A DNA stretch of 64,000 bases. It comes from Gammaproteobacteria bacterium (GTDB lineage: Bacteria; Gemmatimonadota; Gemmatimonadetes; Longimicrobiales; Gaopeijiaceae). The stretch covers positions 62,001 through 126,000 of the forward strand of contig JAPPMM010000018.1 of NCBI GenBank assembly GCA_028819075.1. The letters are read 5' to 3'. Of the stretch, positions 15,240-23,476 are shown in pieces (positions within the stretch are counted from its first letter, which is position 1; each line of letters starts with the position of its first letter). The notes below the pieces were generated by a model. That model searched no databases, was not told the DNA's origin, and saw only the letters and a program-made list of their open reading frames with translations. A program made the translations under genes and the position numbers.

Positions 15240-16901
15240 ATGACGATTGGAACGAGGGTCCCGGGTCGGAGTTGCGATGCCGGCATGGGACGGTGGCGGC
15301 GGTGGTCGGCTCGGCGCACCGGACATGCTGGCCGAAGGCACGTGGCGGGCGGACGGGCGATCGCGGCAATCGGTGCGGCTCTGACCGGCGCGGCGTCCGG
15401 CACCGTCGTGGCGCTCTTCGCGGTATCGGCGCTCGCGGCTCAGGGCACGGCATCGCCATCGAGCGGACCCTTGGTGGAGGACGTGACCTTCAGCCGGGAC
15501 ATCGCGCCCATCCTGCAGCGCGCCTGCGTCCGCTGCCACCGGGACAACGGCGTCGCCCCCATGTCGCTCGTCACCTACCGCGATGCGCGCCGCTACGCGC
15601 GCCGAATCGCCGAGCGCACCGGAATCCGCGATCGGGCGGGCGCCATGCCTCCGTGGTACGTCGAGAAGGACATCGGCATCCAGCACTTCAAGGACGACAT
15701 GTCGCTCGACGATTGGGAGATCGCCGCGATCGACGCGTGGCATCGCGCGGGCGCGCCCGAAGGGGATCCGGCGGACATGCCTCCACCCCTGGAATTCGAC
15801 GACGACATCGTATGGACGGCAGGCGAACCCGACCTCATCGTCCGCCTGCCCGAAGTGCTCGTGGGGGGCGACTCGCCCGACTGGTGGGGCGAGATCGAGA
15901 GCGTCCCGACCGGCCTCACCGAGGACCGGTACGTGAAATCCGTTGAGATCCGCGAGGTCAACGATGTGCCGTCGACGCGGACCAGCACCGAACACGAGGG
16001 TCGCCACACGGTCGGAGGGCGGTTCGTGGTGCACCACATGATCTGGAGCACGCGCGTGCTCGAGGGCAGGGAATCGGGGGTCGGCTCCGAGCGGGCTTCC
16101 ACCGATGTCGGCTGGCCGGTGCACGAAGTCGGGCGCGAACCGGACATCTTCGACGAGGACGCCGGCCGGCTGCTTCGCGCCGGGTCGTCGGTCGTGTCCA
16201 ACTCGGTGCATCTTCACTCCAACGGCCTTGATACGCGCGCCCACCTGGAGATCGGCTTCCGCTTCCATCCTCCGGATTACGAGCCCAGGTACCGGCGGGC
16301 CAGCTTCGGACTGGGCAACGGAAGCGACATCGACATCCGCGCCGGAGAGTCGGGACAGGAGCTGCACGCGTACCGCGTCCTGAACCAGCACACCAAGATC
16401 GTCACCTTCGAGCCCCACCTGCACGCCCCCGGAATGCGCATGTGCCTGGAGGCGATCTGGGGCTTCAACGTCGAGACCATCAACTGCGTCGGCTACGACC
16501 ACAACTGGGTGCGCGGCTACACCTACGCCCAGGATCACCAGCCGCTCCTGCCCAGAGGGACGATTCTCCACATCGTCGGCTACATGGACACCTCCGAGGA
16601 AAACCGGAACGTGCCCGACACCCGCAACTGGCAGGGCTCGGGCAACCGGTCGGTGGCGAACATGTTCATCGATCTCGGGATGCGGGTGCAACTCACCGAC
16701 GAGCAGTTCGTGGAGGAGATGGCGAGGCGCAGGGAGCGGCTGGAGCTGGGTCCCAACGACCACGTGATCGGCTGCCCGCTGTGCATGGTCGTTCCGGAGA
16801 ACGGGAATCCGCGGTACTACGCAGATGCGGATGCGGCGGCTGCGAACGGCGAGCGAGCCGGGTCAACAGGCAATCCGCCCCCGGGCTCCCGCAATCGATA
16901 G
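15240..16901 (+). CDS. Cytochrome c-like / copper type II monooxygenase-like secreted protein
   Basis: Encodes 553 residues with a long Arg-rich N-terminus and a hydrophobic export segment ending ALAAQ near residue 67. A single haem-binding motif, CVRCH, sits in FSRDIAPILQRACVRCHRDN, with a plausible distal Met at GVAPMS. The remainder resembles ascorbate-dependent copper type II monooxygenases: VVHHMIW (paired His), NSVHLHSNG (HxH) and FEPHLHAPGMRM (His plus Met), then YDHNWVRGYTYAQ and LPRGTILH. Such two-copper enzymes hydroxylate small molecules or peptide C-termini. The haem domain could deliver electrons. It follows the M28 gene by 13 bases after an AGAGGAG site. The substrate is unknown. 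Confidence 0.75.
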   Translation: MTIGTRVPGRSCDAGMGRWRRWSARRTGHAGRRHVAGGRAIAAIGAALTGAASGTVVALFAVSALAAQGTASPSSGPLVEDVTFSRDIAPILQRACVRCHRDNGVAPMSLVTYRDARRYARRIAERTGIRDRAGAMPPWYVEKDIGIQHFKDDMSLDDWEIAAIDAWHRAGAPEGDPADMPPPLEFDDDIVWTAGEPDLIVRLPEVLVGGDSPDWWGEIESVPTGLTEDRYVKSVEIREVNDVPSTRTSTEHEGRHTVGGRFVVHHMIWSTRVLEGRESGVGSERASTDVGWPVHEVGREPDIFDEDAGRLLRAGSSVVSNSVHLHSNGLDTRAHLEIGFRFHPPDYEPRYRRASFGLGNGSDIDIRAGESGQELHAYRVLNQHTKIVTFEPHLHAPGMRMCLEAIWGFNVETINCVGYDHNWVRGYTYAQDHQPLLPRGTILHIVGYMDTSEENRNVPDTRNWQGSGNRSVANMFIDLGMRVQLTDEQFVEEMARRRERLELGPNDHVIGCPLCMVVPENGNPRYYADADAAAANGERAGSTGNPPPGSRNR

Positions 16902-17013
16902 CGCCGTGAAGGTGGGCATGAGTGCCCGCCGGGGTCGCGTGACGGGCGGCAGCGGGGCCGGGCTTCGCGCCACCATCCCGACGTGGTCGGCGACATTTGG
17001 GAACGTTCGAGCG

Positions 17014-18057
17014 ATGCGTGGCATCGGGACCGGGCTCCGAGCCGCATCCAGGGTGAGCCGTAGCGTCGCCGCGCTCCGCGCCGTAGTCAGGCTAAGGTGT
17101 GGCGTCGCGGTGCTTGTGCTCGTCGCCGCCGCGTGGGCCTCCGACTCCGCTGCGCAGACCTATTCCCACGGGCAGAACGTGGCTCCGGCGTTCGAGGGCT
17201 GGGAGAGAAACGAGGACGGCTCGTTCAACTTCCTGTTCGGCTACATGAACCGGAACTGGCTCGAGGAAATCGATGTGCCGATGGGGGAGGACAACGCGTT
17301 CTCGCCCGGCCCGCCCGACCGCGGCCAGCCGACCCACTTCCTCCCCCGCCGCAACCGCTTCGTGTTCAAGGTTCGCGTCCCGTCCGACTGGGGCGACCAG
17401 GAACTCGTGTGGACGCTGACCAGCAACGGGATGACCGAGCGCGCCTACGCGACCCTGCGGCCGGACTACATCGTGGACAACACGGTCGTCATGTCCGAGA
17501 CCGGCGCCCTGGGGGCCGGCTCCAGCAGTCCGGAGATGCGCGCCAACCAGCCCCCGACCATCGCGCTCGAGGGGCCGGATGTTCGCGAGACGTCGGTGGG
17601 ACGGCCGGTCACCATCACCGTGCTCGTCGAAGATGACGGCCTGTTGCGCCCCCGACGCCGCCAGGCGCCCCCACCCCCCGAGACCGCGGAAGACTCAGCA
17701 CGTGCCGACTCGATCTGGAACGCCCCCCCGACCTTCAGCCGCCGGCAACTCGCGCCTCCCTCCCGCGTCACCGTCCAGAAGGTGAACGGCCTCTTCATGT
17801 CGTGGTTCCTCTACCGCGGCGAGGGCGCCGTCTCGTTCGACCCTCCCCAGGTGAAGGTGTGGGAGGACACCCGCACGGGTGCCAACTCCCCTTGGGCCCC
17901 GCTGTGGTTCCCACCCGACCCACCGGAAGACGGCCGTTGGACCGTGAACGTGACCTTCGACCAGCCGGGCACATACCTCCTTCGCGGCCGGGCCGACGAC
18001 GGCGGGCTGTTCGCAGACGTTGAGCTGACCGTGTTCGTGCGGCCCACGACGAGCTGA
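17014..18057 (+). CDS. Secreted hypothetical protein, parent of a nearby pseudogene
   Basis: Encodes 347 residues from the ATG chosen here; the in-frame ATG at 16918 has a better ribosome site (AAGGTGGG) but would put about 60 residues before the signal peptide. The export signal is CGVAVLVLVAAAWASDSAAQ. The mature part has a GYMNRNWLEE segment and two Ig-like stretches (FVFKVRVPSDWGDQELVWTL; WTVNVTFDQPGTYLLRGRAD) separated by a Pro/Arg-rich linker. I do not recognise a named family. A shortened broken copy lies about 1.4 kb downstream. It follows the copper-protein gene and may belong to that transcript. Confidence 0.75.
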   Translation: MRGIGTGLRAASRVSRSVAALRAVVRLRCGVAVLVLVAAAWASDSAAQTYSHGQNVAPAFEGWERNEDGSFNFLFGYMNRNWLEEIDVPMGEDNAFSPGPPDRGQPTHFLPRRNRFVFKVRVPSDWGDQELVWTLTSNGMTERAYATLRPDYIVDNTVVMSETGALGAGSSSPEMRANQPPTIALEGPDVRETSVGRPVTITVLVEDDGLLRPRRRQAPPPPETAEDSARADSIWNAPPTFSRRQLAPPSRVTVQKVNGLFMSWFLYRGEGAVSFDPPQVKVWEDTRTGANSPWAPLWFPPDPPEDGRWTVNVTFDQPGTYLLRGRADDGGLFADVELTVFVRPTTS

Positions 18058-18075: not shown

Positions 18076-18098
18076 CCGATTGGCTTCTGCAGCCAAAG
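18076..18098. repeat. 23-bp exact copy of part of the ABC permease gene
   Basis: These 23 bases are identical, in the same orientation, to 20285-20307 inside the downstream ABC permease gene, where the complement encodes LWLQKPIG. Flanks do not match. It looks like the remnant of a second permease copy or a recombination scar at the left edge of the accessory island. Confidence 0.7.
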
Positions 18099-18107
18099 CA
18101 CGAGTGG

Positions 18108-18138
18108 CCCAGGCCCGGGAGTCTCTCCCGGGCCTGGG
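18108..18138. repeat. Conserved hairpin, left copy
   Basis: A perfect 13-bp inverted repeat (CCCAGGCCCGGGA, loop GTCTC, TCCCGGGCCTGGG). The hairpin and about 15 bases on each side recur at 22637-22667. Neither strand has a T-run after the stem, so it is not a standard intrinsic terminator, though it lies downstream of both flanking genes. Confidence 0.8.
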
Positions 18139-18189
18139 AGCAGCCGCGCCAGGACGAAGTCCGTTGATTTGCCGGCTAGTGGCGAAGAC

Positions 18190-18477
18190 CTATAGCAAGA
18201 AGCTGCTTACCAAGTCGACGCCACAAGACACCCTGTCGATGCCCCACTTCATCCCGCACCCGGCGCGACTGAAGAACGTGCGGCCCCCGCACTGAGCCAT
18301 AGCGTCGTCAGCGTTGGCAAGACACCGGTCGAATTGCTCGCTGGGTGTACATTCCCGCGGACTGCCGTACATGGTGTAACACTCCGCCAGCAGTGGTCCA
18401 GCTCCAAGAGCCAGAGCCGTTGCGAGCGCGAGACCGAGTCCGGTGGTTCGCACTAGGGGGTTTCTTGCGCGCATCAT
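18190..18477 (-). CDS. Small secreted cysteine protein, C-x10-C family, member 1
   Basis: Encodes 95 residues after AGGAG, with two adjacent ATGs available. The signal peptide (TGLGLALATALALGAGPLLA) is closely similar to those of the two other family genes in this island. The mature part has six cysteines. The last four follow C-x10-C-x10-C-x10-C (starting DRCLANADDAMAQC and ending DRVSC), which suggests a disulfide-stapled helical hairpin; two more Cys lie at the N-terminus (AECYTMY, PRECTP). No known family is recognised. It sits between a conserved hairpin and member 2, on the same strand. AGA, CTA and GTA codons are frequent, unlike most of the window. Confidence 0.7.
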   Translation of the reverse strand: MMRARNPLVRTTGLGLALATALALGAGPLLAECYTMYGSPRECTPSEQFDRCLANADDAMAQCGGRTFFSRAGCGMKWGIDRVSCGVDLVSSFLL

Positions 18478-18604
18478 GTTATTCTCCTGTGGGTTTGAGG
18501 TGGATGACTAAATGGAGGCCGTCGCATCTTTGCTCGGGCCAGATCGATACAGTTGTCCGCGCTGGTCGGAAGCACGACCGGCACGATCAGAAGGAGATCA
18601 GTGG

Positions 18605-18838
18605 TCAAAAGACGCAATCCACCGCGTCCAGGAACGCTACGAAGGAGCAAGTGACACGGTCCCAGAAGCCCTTCGCCTGCCTGAGGCATTCGCCGTAGTC
18701 CTCTACGGCTTCGCCCAGGCACCCTGGGAGTACTTCCCCCTGCGCGGCCAGCACCGGTCCGGTGCCCAGCGCCAGTGCGACCATCAGAGCGAGGCTTGCC
18801 CCGGTCAAGCGGACAAATCGTTTGGTTTTGGCGATCAT
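18605..18838 (-). CDS. Small secreted cysteine protein, C-x10-C family, member 2
   Basis: Encodes 77 residues from an ATG after GAGGAGAG. The signal peptide is TGASLALMVALALGTGPVLA, nearly the same as in member 3. The mature 46-residue part contains four cysteines in the order C-x10-C-x12-C-x10-C: GCLGEAVEDYGEC, then GFWDRVTC, then LDAVDC close to the end. It lies in the left copy of a duplicated cassette whose right copy holds member 3. Cysteine spacing, length and leader point to a paralogous family; function is unknown, with a secreted structural peptide, bacteriocin-like peptide or chaperone-like hairpin all possible. Confidence 0.72.
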   Translation of the reverse strand: MIAKTKRFVRLTGASLALMVALALGTGPVLAAQGEVLPGCLGEAVEDYGECLRQAKGFWDRVTCSFVAFLDAVDCVF

Positions 18839-19298
18839 GGCTCTCTCCTCGTATGGATTTGACTGTGCGGGCCGTCTTGTCGGCCTGCGTGAGCGGACCA
18901 GCCGATTCGCGCGAGTGGGCGGGATCTCACCGCAGGTGGCATCTCGAGAGCTGTGTCACGGTCGAGTTCGAGGTTGGGTTGTATCGACATGGTGTGCTCG
19001 TTGAGGTCGCGGCCAGCGCGGCTCCTTGTCGCGCTGTTTGCGAGTGAGATCGGAGTCCCTCATCCGCGAATCGGTGCCTGTTCGCGGGTCACTCATCCAC
19101 GTCTCGTACCGAAGCGCGGACCCCGGGCGAGTCAATGGCGGGATGTGCCGGTGTCCCTGAATCGGGCCGGTGCCGACGCATCGCAGCGGCGTCGAGACCG
19201 GATAGAGGCGTTGCCGACCCGACCCTGCCAGGGCCGGAGACGTCGGCGAGGGACGGACGCAAGCCCGCGGACACGGAACTGGACGAACAGAGAGGGAA
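18839..19298. other. Duplicated non-coding segment, left copy
   Basis: About 460 bases without a supported gene. Both ends match the segment at 22968-23269. 18839-18895 corresponds to the stretch just upstream of member 3. 19083-19165, with scattered matches up to 19298, corresponds to the part before the small membrane-protein gene. The middle (about 18896-19082) is extra here. It presumably holds the promoter of member 2 on the minus strand; no clear boxes were identified. Confidence 0.65.
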
Positions 19299-19465
19299 AG
19301 GAAGACGTTTTCTCAGCTGCCTGCGGGGGAATCACTGCGGTCCTGCTTCTGAAGGCTGCGGCCTTCGCCTTCGGGTTCAAGCTGCTGCTGATCGCCGCAG
19401 CCGTCCGGCTCGTCTGGACGCTGCTCCGGAAAAGCCGGTGGTGCCGAACCTGCGACGAGGAATAG
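19299..19465 (+). pseudogene. Decayed copy of the small two-helix membrane protein gene
   Basis: Aligns with the intact gene at 23270-23476, from the ribosome-site context (GAGAGGGAA) to the final GACGA(G/C)GAATAG. Three lesions are visible: the ATG has become AGG, a base is missing near CTGCGGGGGAATC so the frame shifts, and about 40 bases encoding the first membrane helix are deleted. The stop codon is preserved. It is directly fused to a second pseudogene fragment. Confidence 0.8.
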
Positions 19466-19792
19466 GACGGCTCCTCCAACTTCCTGTTCGGCTATATGAA
19501 CCGGAACTAGCTCGTGTGGACCCTCAACAGCCTCGGGATGACCGAGCAGACCTACGCGACCCGGCGGCCGGGACCATCGTCGACAACACGGTCGTCATAT
19601 CCGAGACCGGCGCCCTGGGAGCCGGTTCCAGCAGCCCGGAGATGCGCGCCAACCAGCCGCTGGCGATCAACGTCGAGGGTCTTGATGTTCGCGAGACATC
19701 GGTGGGTCGGCAGGTACCATCACCGTGCTCGTCGAGGGACGGACGGCCTGTGCGGGTTCCCCTACTGCGGCGAGGGCCACCTTTGCGGCATC
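19466..19792 (+). pseudogene. Truncated copy of the secreted protein gene at 17014-18057
   Basis: It starts abruptly with sequence matching 17217 onward (GACGGCTC-TTCAACTTCCTG). About 140 bases of the parent are then missing, with the junction at a GGAACT shared by both sides of the gap, and the join creates a TAG. Matching resumes (CTCGTGTGGAC, GACAACACGGTCGTCAT, GAGATGCGCGCCAACCAGCC) to about 19735. A second gap removes about 150 bases before a last match around CTACTGCGGCGAGGGC. The N-terminal signal sequence and C-terminus are absent and frames are broken, so it cannot encode the parent product. Confidence 0.8.
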
Positions 19793-19800
19793 CAGCATGC

Positions 19801-20544
19801 TCAGGACTGCTCCGCGTGGGGCAGCCGGCCTTTGTTGACCGTGTACCAGACGCCGAGCGCACCCAAGGCCGTCCAACCGATGCTGTATGCAAGGATTTGT
19901 GCAGATGGGATCCAGATGGCATCGGATCCGCCGACAAGGAAATCACGGAATTCTCTAATGGCGGGAATCGGAACGAGTAGTGCTTCGACCAGCCAGTTCC
20001 AAGGCCGTCCAAGCAGGTGGGTCGAGCCCGTTTCACGGGCCAGGGCTCCCGCCGCCACGAAACCGATCGCAACCAGCGTCGATCCTCTCGATATCCAGGA
20101 CGAGAAGCCAAACACAACGCAAGCGAAGATGAGCACATATGGAAGGTAGCCGAGCAGCCGACTGATCTCGTCGGGTTGACCCAGCGCCGCGATCCCCAGG
20201 CGCGTTGCACCAAGCGCGAGAAGCGCAAACACCAGCGAGACCAGCAGCCCTTCCAGGAACCTCGACAGATAGAAGTGCACCGGTCCGATTGGCTTCTGCA
20301 GCCAAAGTCGTGCCATACCGCGTCGGAAGTCACCTGACACAATACCGGACGCGAAGACCAGCGGAAGAGCGAGACACAAGATTGCGAATATGTCACCGAG
20401 ACCTACCGCGAGCAGGCTGGGCTCACCGCCGATGAGATTGGGCCACTGGATGATTCCGATGGCGAGGACCATCAGTGTGAGAGCTTTGACACGCGACCGA
20501 ACCAATAGGATGACTCGTCTGCTCAAGGGCATATACATAATCAT
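19801..20544 (-). CDS. ABC-2-type transporter permease
   Basis: Encodes 247 residues with about six hydrophobic segments, for example ALTLMVLAIGIIQW, IFAILCLALPLVFASGIVSG, LLVSLVFALLALGA, YVLIFACVVFGFSSW, LVAIGFVAAGAL and AYSIGWTALGALGVW. The loop SGDFRRGMARLWLQKPIGPV after the second helix pair is the usual cytoplasmic coupling region of ABC-2 permeases. The start overlaps the ATPase gene by four bases, so the pair is co-translated and should form one exporter. Codon use (ATA, AGA, CTA, TTG) departs from the window average. The cargo is unknown. Confidence 0.85.
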   Translation of the reverse strand: MIMYMPLSRRVILLVRSRVKALTLMVLAIGIIQWPNLIGGEPSLLAVGLGDIFAILCLALPLVFASGIVSGDFRRGMARLWLQKPIGPVHFYLSRFLEGLLVSLVFALLALGATRLGIAALGQPDEISRLLGYLPYVLIFACVVFGFSSWISRGSTLVAIGFVAAGALARETGSTHLLGRPWNWLVEALLVPIPAIREFRDFLVGGSDAIWIPSAQILAYSIGWTALGALGVWYTVNKGRLPHAEQS

Positions 20545-21278
20545 TCTCCAGTTCCCGTAAACTCAGCTTCCAGTATCGTGTCGGCGGGAGCGTCGCCAGG
20601 GCTGAGGACGGGGCCTGGACGGATGGTCCCATCTTCAAGAACGAAGGCGCGGTTCGCCAATCGTTCCACTTCCCCCAGTTCGTGGCTGGCCAGCACCACA
20701 GTGGCTCCCCGATTCCGCGCGCCAATGATTTCTGCTCTAAGGGCGTGGCGTGCGGGTGGGTCGAGCCCCGCAAAAGGCTCATCGAGCAATACGACCGTGG
20801 GTTCACCGATCAGGGCGTAGGCCAAAGACAGCCGTCGCTTCATGCCTTTCGAGTACCGTCGGGCGGGGCGCAAGAGGGTGGCGTCGTCAAATCGGGTTCG
20901 CGAGATGGCTTTCCGGAACGCGCCATGCCGGTCATCCGGCGAGATCCCGCTGAGGTCGACGCCGCGCCCGAGCACATCCCGGGCGTTCCACAGTCCCGGA
21001 AAGTCAATCGTCTCGGGCTGATAGGCGATTCCCTTCCGCTGCCGGTACTCCATGGGCGGCAAACCACCGATGAGGCACTTCCCCGCGTCGACCGGCAAGA
21101 ACCCGAGCAGGACACGGAACAACGTTGTCTTCCCTGCTCCGTTAGGGCCGACGATCGCAGTGATCTCACCTGATCGTGCGACAAAGTCGATCTTCGACAG
21201 CACCCGACGACGTCGGGAGAATCTGCGGTAGGATACGCTCGCCCCGTCGACAACGATATCCGCCTGTGTAGCACCCAT
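20541..21278 (-). CDS. ABC transporter ATP-binding protein
   Basis: Encodes 245 residues from an ATG (MGATQADIVVDGASV) one base after the stop of the propeller gene, which favours this start over an upstream in-frame one. Motifs: Walker A GPNGAGKTT, Q-loop AYQPET, a signature region YSKGMKRRLSLAYAL in place of LSGGQ, Walker B VVLLDEPFAGLDPP and switch His in LASHEL. The weak signature is typical of the ABC-2 exporter class. It is middle gene of a three-gene operon (propeller, ATPase, permease) and powers the membrane partner. Confidence 0.9.
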   Translation of the reverse strand: MGATQADIVVDGASVSYRRFSRRRRVLSKIDFVARSGEITAIVGPNGAGKTTLFRVLLGFLPVDAGKCLIGGLPPMEYRQRKGIAYQPETIDFPGLWNARDVLGRGVDLSGISPDDRHGAFRKAISRTRFDDATLLRPARRYSKGMKRRLSLAYALIGEPTVVLLDEPFAGLDPPARHALRAEIIGARNRGATVVLASHELGEVERLANRAFVLEDGTIRPGPVLSPGDAPADTILEAEFTGTGE

Positions 21279-21279
21279 G

Positions 21280-22398
21280 TCAGCGACCCTCCAGCGCGTA
21301 GGTGGTGAGCCGAACGCCTTCGAGATCGTCCCAGCCCAGCAAGGCCGTCCCCTCATGTACAAAGGCGTATCTCGCACGGGGAACGAGAAGCCTGATCGAG
21401 TCTTGTCGGCCAGGTGCGATCAGTTCATAACTCTCGGGCTGATCGGAAGCCAGGACGCGGTAGATCCATATGCCGTTGCGGGTCACAAAGACTTCTGCAA
21501 TGGGATAGAACTGCTCAGGCAGCGTCCACCGCATGTCTGTCCGAGCGGACAGTGTGGAACGCATCTGTCTGATCAATTCCCTTGGTGTCGCTACCACTGC
21601 GAGCCAGTCATGGCAGACGGACTCGATCGCCTCTCCATCGAGCCGATAGACGCCGAGGCATGTGTCTTGCGCGCTACCGAACACGAATCCCTCGGGATGC
21701 AAGCTCAGGATCGGCGGAGTGAGAGCGTCGAGCACGACCGGCGCGTCAGACTGGGGAAGGCGCGCAGCCACCGTCCGGTTGAACCCGTCCCCGGCCTCCA
21801 GGACCACGCGTGTCTCCGTCCTTATTCCGTCGCTTCTGCATCTGACGAGCAGCAAAAGGCCGAGCGGCGTGGAAGCGAGATCGTGGATTTCGGGCAGAAG
21901 GCATGCGTCGAGGCGAACCAGTCGGGTGGCCAGCACAGCGCCTTCGGGCGAATACAAGTTCACCTGATTATTTGTCCGCTCCGTCACCACGATCGAATCG
22001 CCATGCGCCGCGATCGCAGCCGGGAGTGCTCCGAATTCACCCGGCCCGCGGCCTCTTCGGCCGAAACTGCCCAATAACGCCCCGGCGGAGTCGAGGCGGT
22101 GAACCCGGGCGGCCCGCGCGTCAAGGACGAACCAGTCTCCATCGTGAAAGACCGCGTCGGTGGCGGAGAGTACATTCTCCAGGAGGGGCACGTCCAGAGG
22201 CACCTCCAGGGGTCTTCGCTCCTGGTAGACCTCTACTCGGTCAGCGTTGGCAGCCCCCCGTGCATCCATGGGGCGACGGTCCCGTAATGTCTGTACGACG
22301 CTCAGGAACAGAACGGATGCGGCTGCCGCGAAGGCGATTCCGACCACCCATCCGGCCGATCCGGCTACAGATCCTCCTGCCTTGGGAATCATGAACAT
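21280..22398 (-). CDS. Membrane-anchored beta-propeller protein (6-bladed/NHL-like)
   Basis: Encodes 372 residues; the second Met (start at 22392) has the better spacing from AAGAAAGG. One N-terminal membrane segment (GWVVGIAFAAAASVLFLSVV) anchors a domain with propeller-like repeats: WFVLDARAARVHRLDSAGAL, SFGRRGRGPGEFGA, DSIVVTERTNNQVNLYSPEG, and later blades. The GRRGRGPGEF motif is typical of 6-bladed NHL-type propellers. It is first in the operon with the ABC ATPase one base away, so it may help the exporter act at the periplasmic face. No enzymatic motif is seen. Confidence 0.8.
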   Translation of the reverse strand: MFMIPKAGGSVAGSAGWVVGIAFAAAASVLFLSVVQTLRDRRPMDARGAANADRVEVYQERRPLEVPLDVPLLENVLSATDAVFHDGDWFVLDARAARVHRLDSAGALLGSFGRRGRGPGEFGALPAAIAAHGDSIVVTERTNNQVNLYSPEGAVLATRLVRLDACLLPEIHDLASTPLGLLLLVRCRSDGIRTETRVVLEAGDGFNRTVAARLPQSDAPVVLDALTPPILSLHPEGFVFGSAQDTCLGVYRLDGEAIESVCHDWLAVVATPRELIRQMRSTLSARTDMRWTLPEQFYPIAEVFVTRNGIWIYRVLASDQPESYELIAPGRQDSIRLLVPRARYAFVHEGTALLGWDDLEGVRLTTYALEGR

Positions 22399-22636
22399 CC
22401 TTTCTTGTTATTGGTGAATAATTCAGGCTCTTGCCATTCTCTCCCGAGCGATGCCGCAGCCAGCAAACGCCGCGGGATGCAGGCGGCCAGCACGCCGGTT
22501 CCGGCACGCCTTCCAGAGTGCTGCCCGCCGCAGGGCTACGCCATGGCTGGGTGGGAACACATGGTGTCAGATGGAAGCATATGCCGGAGTACGAGTTGGC
22601 GGGACGGCATTTCGGCGGCCGAAGAGCACGAGTCGC
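22399..22636. other. Intergenic region upstream of the propeller-ABC operon
   Basis: Contains the minus-strand leader of the operon. The A/T-rich stretch at about 22405-22430 (TTGTTATTGGTGAATAATTC on the plus strand) is the most AT-rich spot nearby and a likely promoter site, but I cannot define both boxes. No gene is seen in the rest. Confidence 0.4.
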
Positions 22637-22667
22637 CCCAGGCCCGGGAGTTTCTCCCGAGCCTGGG
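22637..22667. repeat. Conserved hairpin, right copy
   Basis: CCCAGGCCCGGGA, loop GTTTC, TCCCGAGCCTGGG: a 13-bp stem with one mismatch, matching the left copy at 18108-18138. Conserved flanks include AGCACGAGT before and GAGCAG(C/T)CGCGCC after. It lies on the 3' side of family member 3. No T-run follows on either strand. Confidence 0.8.
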
Positions 22668-22712
22668 AGCAGTCGCGCCGGCCCGCGCTGGTCGGAAACA
22701 CGACAGGCTCGA

Positions 22713-22967
22713 TCAGAAGGCGTTAGTTATTGCGTCGCTGACGCAACCCAACCCGTCCAGAATCGCTACGGCCCTGCAGCCGACACGGTCCCAGAAGCCG
22801 TCTGCCCCCTCCATGCATTCGACGAAGTCCCTCGCGGCTTCGACCAGGCACCCTGCGAATCCTCTCTCCTGTGCGGCCACCATCGGTCCGGCTCCCAGTG
22901 CCAGTGCGACCACCAGCGCGAGGCTTGCTCCGGTCGAGCGGACGAGTCGTTTGGTTCTTCGGATCAT
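22713..22967 (-). CDS. Small secreted cysteine protein, C-x10-C family, member 3
   Basis: Encodes 84 residues from an ATG after AGGAGAGG. The leader TGASLALVVALALGAGPMVA is almost identical to that of member 2. The mature protein has exactly four cysteines spaced C-x10-C-x12-C-x10-C (GCLVEAARDFVEC, DGFWDRVGC, LDGLGC), with a short extra tail (VSDAITNAF). The conserved GFWDRV and acidic/alanine-rich helices suggest a helical hairpin held by two disulfides in the periplasm or outside the cell. It belongs to the right, intact cassette, divergent from the small membrane-protein gene. Not assigned to a known family. Confidence 0.75.
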   Translation of the reverse strand: MIRRTKRLVRSTGASLALVVALALGAGPMVAAQERGFAGCLVEAARDFVECMEGADGFWDRVGCRAVAILDGLGCVSDAITNAF

Positions 22968-23269
22968 GCCTCTCTCCTACTATGAATTCGACTGTGCCGG
23001 CCGTCTTGTCGGCCTGCGTTCGCGGGTCACTCATCCACGTCTCGTGCCGAAGCGCGGATTCCGGGCGAGTCAATGGCCGGATGCGCCGGTGTCGATGAAT
23101 CGGGCCGGTGTCGATGACTCACGCCGGCGTCGGGGCTCGGGCCGGAATCGACGCATCACACCGGTGTCCAGCCAGTAGAGAGGCGTTACCTTGACCCGGC
23201 CGGGCCCGGAAACTTCAGCGAGAGCCGGACGTACGGCGGCGGACACAAACCCGACGAACGGAGAGGGAA
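22968..23269. other. Duplicated non-coding segment, right copy
   Basis: Divergent interval between member 3 and the small membrane protein. It is homologous to both ends of 18839-19298. It ends with GAGAGGGAA just before the plus-strand ATG. Tandem-like phrases (GCCGGTGTCGATGA, GCCGGTGTCGATGACTC) recur around 23084-23120. Promoters for both genes should lie here; boxes were not defined. Confidence 0.55.
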
Positions 23270-23476
23270 ATGAAGACGTTTGCTCAGCTGTCCGCGGTGG
23301 GAATCGCCGCGGTCCTGCTTCTGAAGCTGCTGGGGGTGATCGTCGTGCCGCTGCTGGGGTTCCTCGCGGCGGCCTTCGCCTTTGGCTTCAAGCTGCTGCT
23401 AATCGCGGCAGCCGTCTGGCTCGTCTTGAAACTGCTCCGGAAAAGCGGGTGCTGCGGAACCAGCGACGACGAATAG
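23270..23476 (+). CDS. Small two-helix membrane protein
   Basis: Encodes 68 residues after a GGAGAGGG ribosome site. Two hydrophobic helices (VGIAAVLLLKLLGVIVVPLL and LAAAFAFGFKLLLIAAAVWL) are followed by a short basic patch, a Cys pair (KSGCCGTS) and an acidic end (DDE). It is likely an inner-membrane hairpin with both ends on one side. It is divergent from secreted family member 3 and duplicated together with it; the other copy is a pseudogene. Function unknown. Confidence 0.7.
   Translation: MKTFAQLSAVGIAAVLLLKLLGVIVVPLLGFLAAAFAFGFKLLLIAAAVWLVLKLLRKSGCCGTSDDE

What the first reader, a model, noticed from the sequence alone, without database searches (positions are those of the whole stretch)
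18190..22967. New family of small secreted proteins with C-x10-C-x(10-12)-C-x10-C spacing
Three genes (18190-18477, 18605-18838, 22713-22967) share near-identical signal peptides ending in ALALG(A/T)GP and a mature part with four cysteines at C-x10-C-x10 or 12-C-x10-C. Members 2 and 3 share GFWDRV between the second and third Cys. The even Cys count and the spacing suggest two disulfides stapling a helical hairpin outside the cytoplasm. I know no named family with this pattern. Expansion beside an exporter operon raises the option of a secreted effector, bacteriocin-like peptide or envelope structural peptide.
Basis: partly seen in the sequence, partly recalled or inferred. Interest (0 to 1): 0.75.

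Follow-up and report, generated by a model that had tools for sequence, protein, structure and literature searches.

The report
Disulfide hairpin peptides with propeller–ABC cassette
Three neighbouring genes encode members of a previously unnamed family of small exported proteins, probably two helices stapled by two disulfide bonds, that across the phylum Gemmatimonadota sit beside a membrane-anchored propeller protein and an ABC transporter at a site that differs sharply between close relatives, which suggests a peptide used in competition together with its own protection genes.

Summary
In detail: three minus-strand genes (18190-18477, 18605-18838, 22713-22967) encode signal peptides plus C-x10-C-x(10/12)-C-x10-C. 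They belong to a family absent from Pfam, NCBIfam, PHROGs and PDB sequences. In a sample of the phylum it occurs in 32 of 395 genomes (13 of 138 genera). Of 58 collected copies, 56 keep both outer x10 spacings while the middle varies from 10 to 14. One member found by position has lost exactly C2 and C3. AlphaFold2 gives a helical hairpin. All this fits C1-C4 and C2-C3 disulfides.

The larger finding is the setting. Apart from loci at contig ends, all but one small-gene locus carries, on the same strand, an NHL-type propeller and/or an ABC ATPase with an ABC-2 permease (129 same-strand pairs, 0 opposite). In the window's genus the locus is hypervariable: flanks are alike but the inside is replaced. 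In one species the peptide and most of the propeller changed while the ABC genes did not. Two species share a different, 99-100% identical cassette there.

Best reading: a diversifying, Sec-exported, bacteriocin-like peptide with propeller and ABC protection genes. Function is inferred. Other phyla could not be searched.

The parts
18190..18477 (-). m1: six-Cys member, signal peptide plus mature part, spacing 10/10/10 with an extra N-terminal Cys pair
   Evidence: ORF and alignment; orthologues in the genus
18605..18838 (-). m2: four-Cys member, spacing 10/12/10
22713..22967 (-). m3: four-Cys member, spacing 10/12/10; mature part modelled as a helical hairpin
21280..22398 (-). NHL-type 6-bladed propeller with N-terminal membrane anchor; Cys conserved across the family (three invariant, one nearly invariant)
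   Evidence: weak Pfam DUF5128, NHL structures by profile, alignment A6
20541..21278 (-). ABC ATPase; likely ATG at 21278, one base after the propeller stop codon (longest ORF starts at 21377)
   Evidence: Pfam ABC_tran, NCBIfam
19801..20544 (-). ABC-2 permease, overlapping the ATPase stop codon by 4 bases
   Evidence: Pfam ABC2_membrane_3, E 6e-6, below its cut-off; homologue weakly like PmtD
22637..22679 (-). strong hairpin after m3, before the propeller gene (attenuator or terminator candidate)
   Evidence: repeat D7; folding and control
18108..18150 (-). the same hairpin after m1
18557..19465 (.). segmental duplication copy 1 (m2, its upstream DNA and a truncated copy of the 68-aa gene); copy 2 is 22683-23476
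18076..23018 (.). variable interval whose content differs between species of the genus while both flanks are conserved

Best explanation
The three genes encode Sec-exported small proteins that fold outside the cytoplasm into a two-helix hairpin clamped by disulfides C1-C4 and C2-C3; six-Cys members add an N-terminal Cys loop. They are the variable product of a conserved cassette: small peptide(s), a membrane-anchored NHL-type propeller facing the periplasm, and an ABC-2 transporter. The most likely function is a bacteriocin-like antagonistic peptide: the peptide, made in excess because a strong hairpin follows its gene, acts on the envelope of related cells, while the propeller and the ABC-2 pair protect the producer by binding the peptide and clearing it from the membrane. 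Shown: family, spacing, gene linkage, operon overlap, locus variability and exchange. Predicted: hairpin fold, signal peptide. Inferred: disulfide pairing, release from the cell, antagonism, protection by propeller plus ABC.
For: Linkage on the same strand across the phylum, 129 pairs to 0 opposite. Reverse search: small Cys genes directly upstream of propellers that were found without them. Hypervariable locus: flanks mostly 83-95% identical, inside replaced. Against G007 the small gene and propeller (dS 2.07) are highly diverged while ATPase (0.37), permease (0.46) and flanks (0.16-0.21) are not, so peptide and propeller changed together. Against G001 and G008 m1 keeps its leader (dS 0.07-0.11) but the mature part is replaced (dS above 2). 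A different peptide/propeller cassette in G003 and G009 is 99.2-100% identical between them amid less similar flanks. Mature four-Cys parts have dN/dS 1.21 (0.79-1.93) against 0.49 for signals and 0.10-0.20 for the ATPase. Tandem copies, patchy presence and peptide-less cassettes resemble bacteriocin loci with orphan immunity. Strong hairpin after the small gene in 6 of 8 genera against 6% of control gene ends.
Against: No antimicrobial activity is shown. These are diderm bacteria and the cassette has no outer-membrane export gene, so release is unexplained. Peptide-plus-propeller (L075, L079, L090) and peptide-plus-ABC (L082-L085) variants leave unclear which part would protect. The dN/dS interval includes 1, so relaxed constraint is possible. 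In genus g25 the joint exchange of peptide and propeller is not clearly seen. The permease-PmtD similarity is weak.
Confidence: 0.45

Rival explanations
1. The small protein is a periplasmic subunit or client of the propeller-ABC-2 complex that serves the producer itself (for example envelope assembly or cofactor delivery in the manner of NosDFY), and the variability reflects pressure from phages, predators or habitat on an exposed machine.
For: Stable linkage over the phylum and translationally coupled propeller-ATPase-permease genes. In family f5 the small gene ends about 10-50 bases from the ATPase homology. No outer-membrane exporter.
Against: Present in only 32 of 395 genomes; tandem paralogues; the peptide can occur without ABC genes (L075, L079, L090); unrelated cassettes replace it at the same site.
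Confidence: 0.3
2. The peptide is a signal or kin-recognition molecule sensed by the propeller.
For: Peptide and propeller changed together in G007 while the ABC genes did not; minimal peptide-propeller pairs exist.
Against: No kinase, sigma factor or other signalling gene was seen as part of the cassette; the ABC pair is then unexplained.
Confidence: 0.13
3. A host-directed (sponge) effector.
For: Close relatives are BD2-11-type MAGs, a lineage abundant in sponges (PMC11651109).
Against: The family extends to other families of the order and class, and the linked propeller-ABC genes look like producer-side functions.
Confidence: 0.05
4. Chance clustering or decaying duplicates without function.
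For: The window shows many local duplications and gene fragments.
Against: Linkage holds across families at different chromosomal positions, 129 to 0 by strand, and Cys spacing is kept at about 20-30% identity.
Confidence: 0.03

Closest known systems
[quoted passage not shown]
   Same: Helical hairpin with two Cys per helix at 9-10 spacing and two disulfides; oxidative folding outside the cytosol (PMC7909247)
   Different: Both spacings are x10 here; bacterial Sec signal peptide; no Pfam or PDB sequence match, so analogy of architecture only
Sec-exported bacteriocins with ABC-type producer protection (lactococcin 972 type, LanFEG-like protection; from memory apart)
   Same: Small exported peptide gene next to ABC transporter genes; locus variability
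   Different: Lactococcin 972 lacks Cys (PMC8538875) and no match to it was seen; a propeller gene is linked here; diderm host
PmtCD exporter/immunity transporter for phenol-soluble modulins
   Same: ABC-2 type; weak permease similarity (NF047564 E 3e-4 for a homologue, PDB PmtD E 0.045)
   Different: Far below the family cut-off; modulins lack Cys and Sec signals (from memory)
NVEALA peptides (PF14055) and 6-bladed propeller DUF5128 (PF17170) of Bacteroides
   Same: Small exported Cys-containing peptides and, from memory, neighbouring 6-bladed propellers
   Different: No NVEALA match in 150 genomes of the phylum; propeller similarity to DUF5128 below its cut-off
NosDFY
   Same: Periplasmic repeat protein plus ATPase plus ABC-2 permease (from memory)
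   Different: NosD is a beta-helix, here an NHL-type propeller; no nitrous oxide reductase gene was noted beside the cassette

Membership tests
This new family (C-x10-C-xn-C-x10-C with signal peptide) | Four Cys with both outer spacings of 10 | tested here: met
   56 of 58 copies; four of six position-found copies keep it
This new family (C-x10-C-xn-C-x10-C with signal peptide) | Linkage to propeller and/or ABC-2 genes | tested here: met
   exception G017 (L081)
Twin CX9C / CHCH | Sequence match to CHCH-type models or solved structures | tested here: not met
Twin CX9C / CHCH | Antiparallel helical hairpin with C1-C4 and C2-C3 disulfides | tested here: inconclusive
   Two helices predicted; S-S distances not available; joint C2/C3 loss agrees
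Bacteriocin with self-protection | Antagonistic activity of the peptide | not testable with these tools
   needs an assay
Bacteriocin with self-protection | Cognate protection genes linked to the peptide gene | tested here: inconclusive
   Linked ABC and propeller genes; their protective role is untested
Pmt exporter (NF047564) | Permease score above the family cut-off (220 bits) | tested here: not met
   Window permease has no hit, a homologue 20.5 bits
NVEALA (PF14055) | Profile match above cut-off | tested here: not met
Phospholip_A2_2 (PF05826) | Score above the gathering threshold | tested here: not met
   m1 15.5 bits against 22, the only member with a hit

The most novel reading that the evidence does not exclude
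A new class of bacterial conflict or recognition cassette in which a doubly disulfide-stapled helical-hairpin peptide and a membrane-anchored NHL propeller form a specificity pair, backed by an ABC-2 transporter, and are exchanged as a module between species at a fixed chromosomal site that can also hold an unrelated peptide/propeller cassette.
Probability: 0.35. Interest if true: 0.8.

Novelty: new variant of a known kind. Interest (0 to 1): 0.62.

Why it matters
If right, this gives the little-studied Gemmatimonadota a peptide-based competition or recognition system with a new stapled-hairpin scaffold, a clear candidate binding partner (the propeller) and a candidate protection module, all directly testable. 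The spacing rule gives an immediate search signature, and the swapped locus is a natural experiment on partner specificity.

Tried and rejected
Known family: Pfam, NCBIfam, PHROGs, PADLOC and PDB sequence searches gave nothing significant for the small proteins. NVEALA homology: rejected. Plasmid or phage carriage: no match. Fold similarity: no significant PDB match. The propeller model was too poor to search with (pLDDT 44). A promoter-pattern search was uninformative. Joint exchange of peptide plus propeller was looked for in genus g25 and not clearly seen. A weak hit in L192 was judged a false positive. The weak phospholipase A2 hit of m1 was rejected (below cut-off, no other member has it). 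Positive selection: the mature dN/dS interval includes 1, so it is not claimed.

Full report
CHECK. The three ORFs are real and lie on the minus strand. Mature spacings are 10/10/10 (m1, with two more N-terminal Cys) and 10/12/10 (m2, m3). All have ribosome-binding sites. m2 and m3 are parts of a segmental duplication that also copied upstream DNA and part of a 68-aa membrane-protein gene, so their shared leader is expected.

FAMILY. A profile of the three finds homologues in 6 of the 9 other species of the genus (G009 has a leader-only match; G003 and G006 none) and in a second genome of the window's own species. Close relatives in named records include a BD2-11 clade Gemmatimonadota MAG. A profile of mature parts, then one of 31 diverse members, extends the family to 32 of 395 genomes and 13 of 138 genera of the phylum, including another family of the order (f2) and another of the class (f5). 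Outer spacings are 10 in 56 of 58 copies; the middle is 12 (27), 11 (21), 10 (5), 13 (2) or 14 (1). A six-Cys subfamily has an extra N-terminal pair (C...R.CTxxE); the tree needs at least two changes between four- and six-Cys states, though many forks are weak. Because the profile itself contains the Cys columns, the members discovered only by their place upstream of a propeller are the fairer test: four keep the spacing, one is frameshifted, one (L136) has lost C2 and C3 together. No library knows the family.

FOLD. In mature m3 the Cys are residues 9, 20, 33 and 44, and 9+44 = 20+33, the register needed for two cross-links in an antiparallel hairpin; eleven residues are about three helical turns, so both Cys of a helix face the same way (from the sequence and general knowledge of helices). 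AlphaFold2 gives two helices, 2-22 and 27-52, pLDDT 78. Joint loss of C2 and C3 fits C2-C3 pairing. The pairing remains inferred.

SETTING. In the window the order is m3, hairpin, propeller, ATPase, permease, duplicated fragments, m2, m1, all on one strand; propeller, ATPase and permease genes touch or overlap. Homologues of these three genes flank the small gene across the phylum. Of 39 loci scanned, those without such neighbours are at contig ends (L073, L077, L094) or in G017 (L081). Some genera have peptide plus propeller only (L075, L079, L090), and f5 has peptide plus ABC only (L082-L085, L191; ATPase only in L190). The reverse search from the propeller is specific (33 matches in 298 genomes at E 1e-30) and shows cassettes without a recognisable small gene (L131, L139, L141, L145) and lone propeller paralogues. 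The propeller is NHL-like, has conserved Cys of its own and an N-terminal membrane anchor, lipobox-like in some homologues (read from the sequences). A strong hairpin follows the small gene in 6 of 8 genera examined, against 6% of control gene ends.

VARIABILITY. Between genus members the DNA outside about 18076-23018 is mostly 83-95% identical, and inside it diverges or is unrelated. Against G007, the propeller (dS 2.07) and small gene are highly diverged while ATPase (0.37), permease (0.46) and flanking genes (0.16-0.21) are not. Against G001 and G008, m1 has nearly identical signal-peptide DNA (dS 0.07-0.11) and a saturated or nearly saturated mature part. G003 and G009 hold a different cassette at the same site: a small Cys-rich exported peptide, a 180-aa protein, a propeller lipoprotein and another small Cys-rich peptide. 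It is 99.2-100% identical between them over 3.5 kb while the surrounding 500-base windows are 82-97%, so it moved recently; one of its peptides was found in no other genome of the taxonomic family (2 of 121). Mature four-Cys parts have dN/dS 1.21 (0.79-1.93), above signal peptides (0.49), the ATPase (0.10-0.20) and the larger flanking genes (0.06-0.25); the interval includes 1. In genus g25 the exchange signal is weak.

MECHANISM. Patchy presence, module exchange at a fixed site, tandem paralogues, fast-changing mature parts behind constant leaders, cassettes without a peptide, and an ABC-2 transporter weakly like a peptide exporter are what bacteriocin loci look like. I commit to that at 0.45. 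A housekeeping propeller-ABC machine with a variable subunit is the main rival (0.3). In both readings peptide and propeller are probably physical partners. The lack of an outer-membrane export gene is the main gap in the bacteriocin reading.

KNOWN KINDS. By architecture it resembles twin CX9C proteins without being one. By gene plan it resembles Sec-exported bacteriocins with ABC protection. By theme it may resemble NVEALA peptides with 6-bladed propellers, a lead from memory only (negative). Phyla other than Gemmatimonadota could not be searched, so the true range of the family is unknown.

Noticed in passing
L152:2306-4572 (G009) and the same site in L153 (G003): Unrelated cassette at the homologous site: two small Cys-rich exported peptides, a 180-aa protein and a propeller lipoprotein, 99-100% identical between two species whose flanks are less alike.
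   Followed up: partly
L004 (G000:C52:87681-87773), L018, L028, L032, L033: Another small exported peptide with a similar leader and a conserved ending (...GNWIWCWPLYWFIFCGTR, C-x9-C), present in five genomes of the genus; context not examined.
   Followed up: no
window 23270-23476: 68-aa membrane protein gene divergent from m3, conserved in the genus at the edge of the variable locus; a truncated copy lies at about 19327-19465.
   Followed up: partly
window 19464-19715: Degraded copy of part of the gene at 16825-18057, left inside the variable locus.
   Followed up: partly
L098 (G033:C1, about 1593400): A second cassette in one genome whose small gene is frameshifted; its C-terminal EVENPC-type extension is shared with L135, a possible third subfamily.
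   Followed up: partly
(L071, L072, L074, L081, L092, L096): Tandem pairs of one six-Cys and one four-Cys gene recur in genera g1, g25 and g9, which raises the option of two-component peptides.
   Followed up: no
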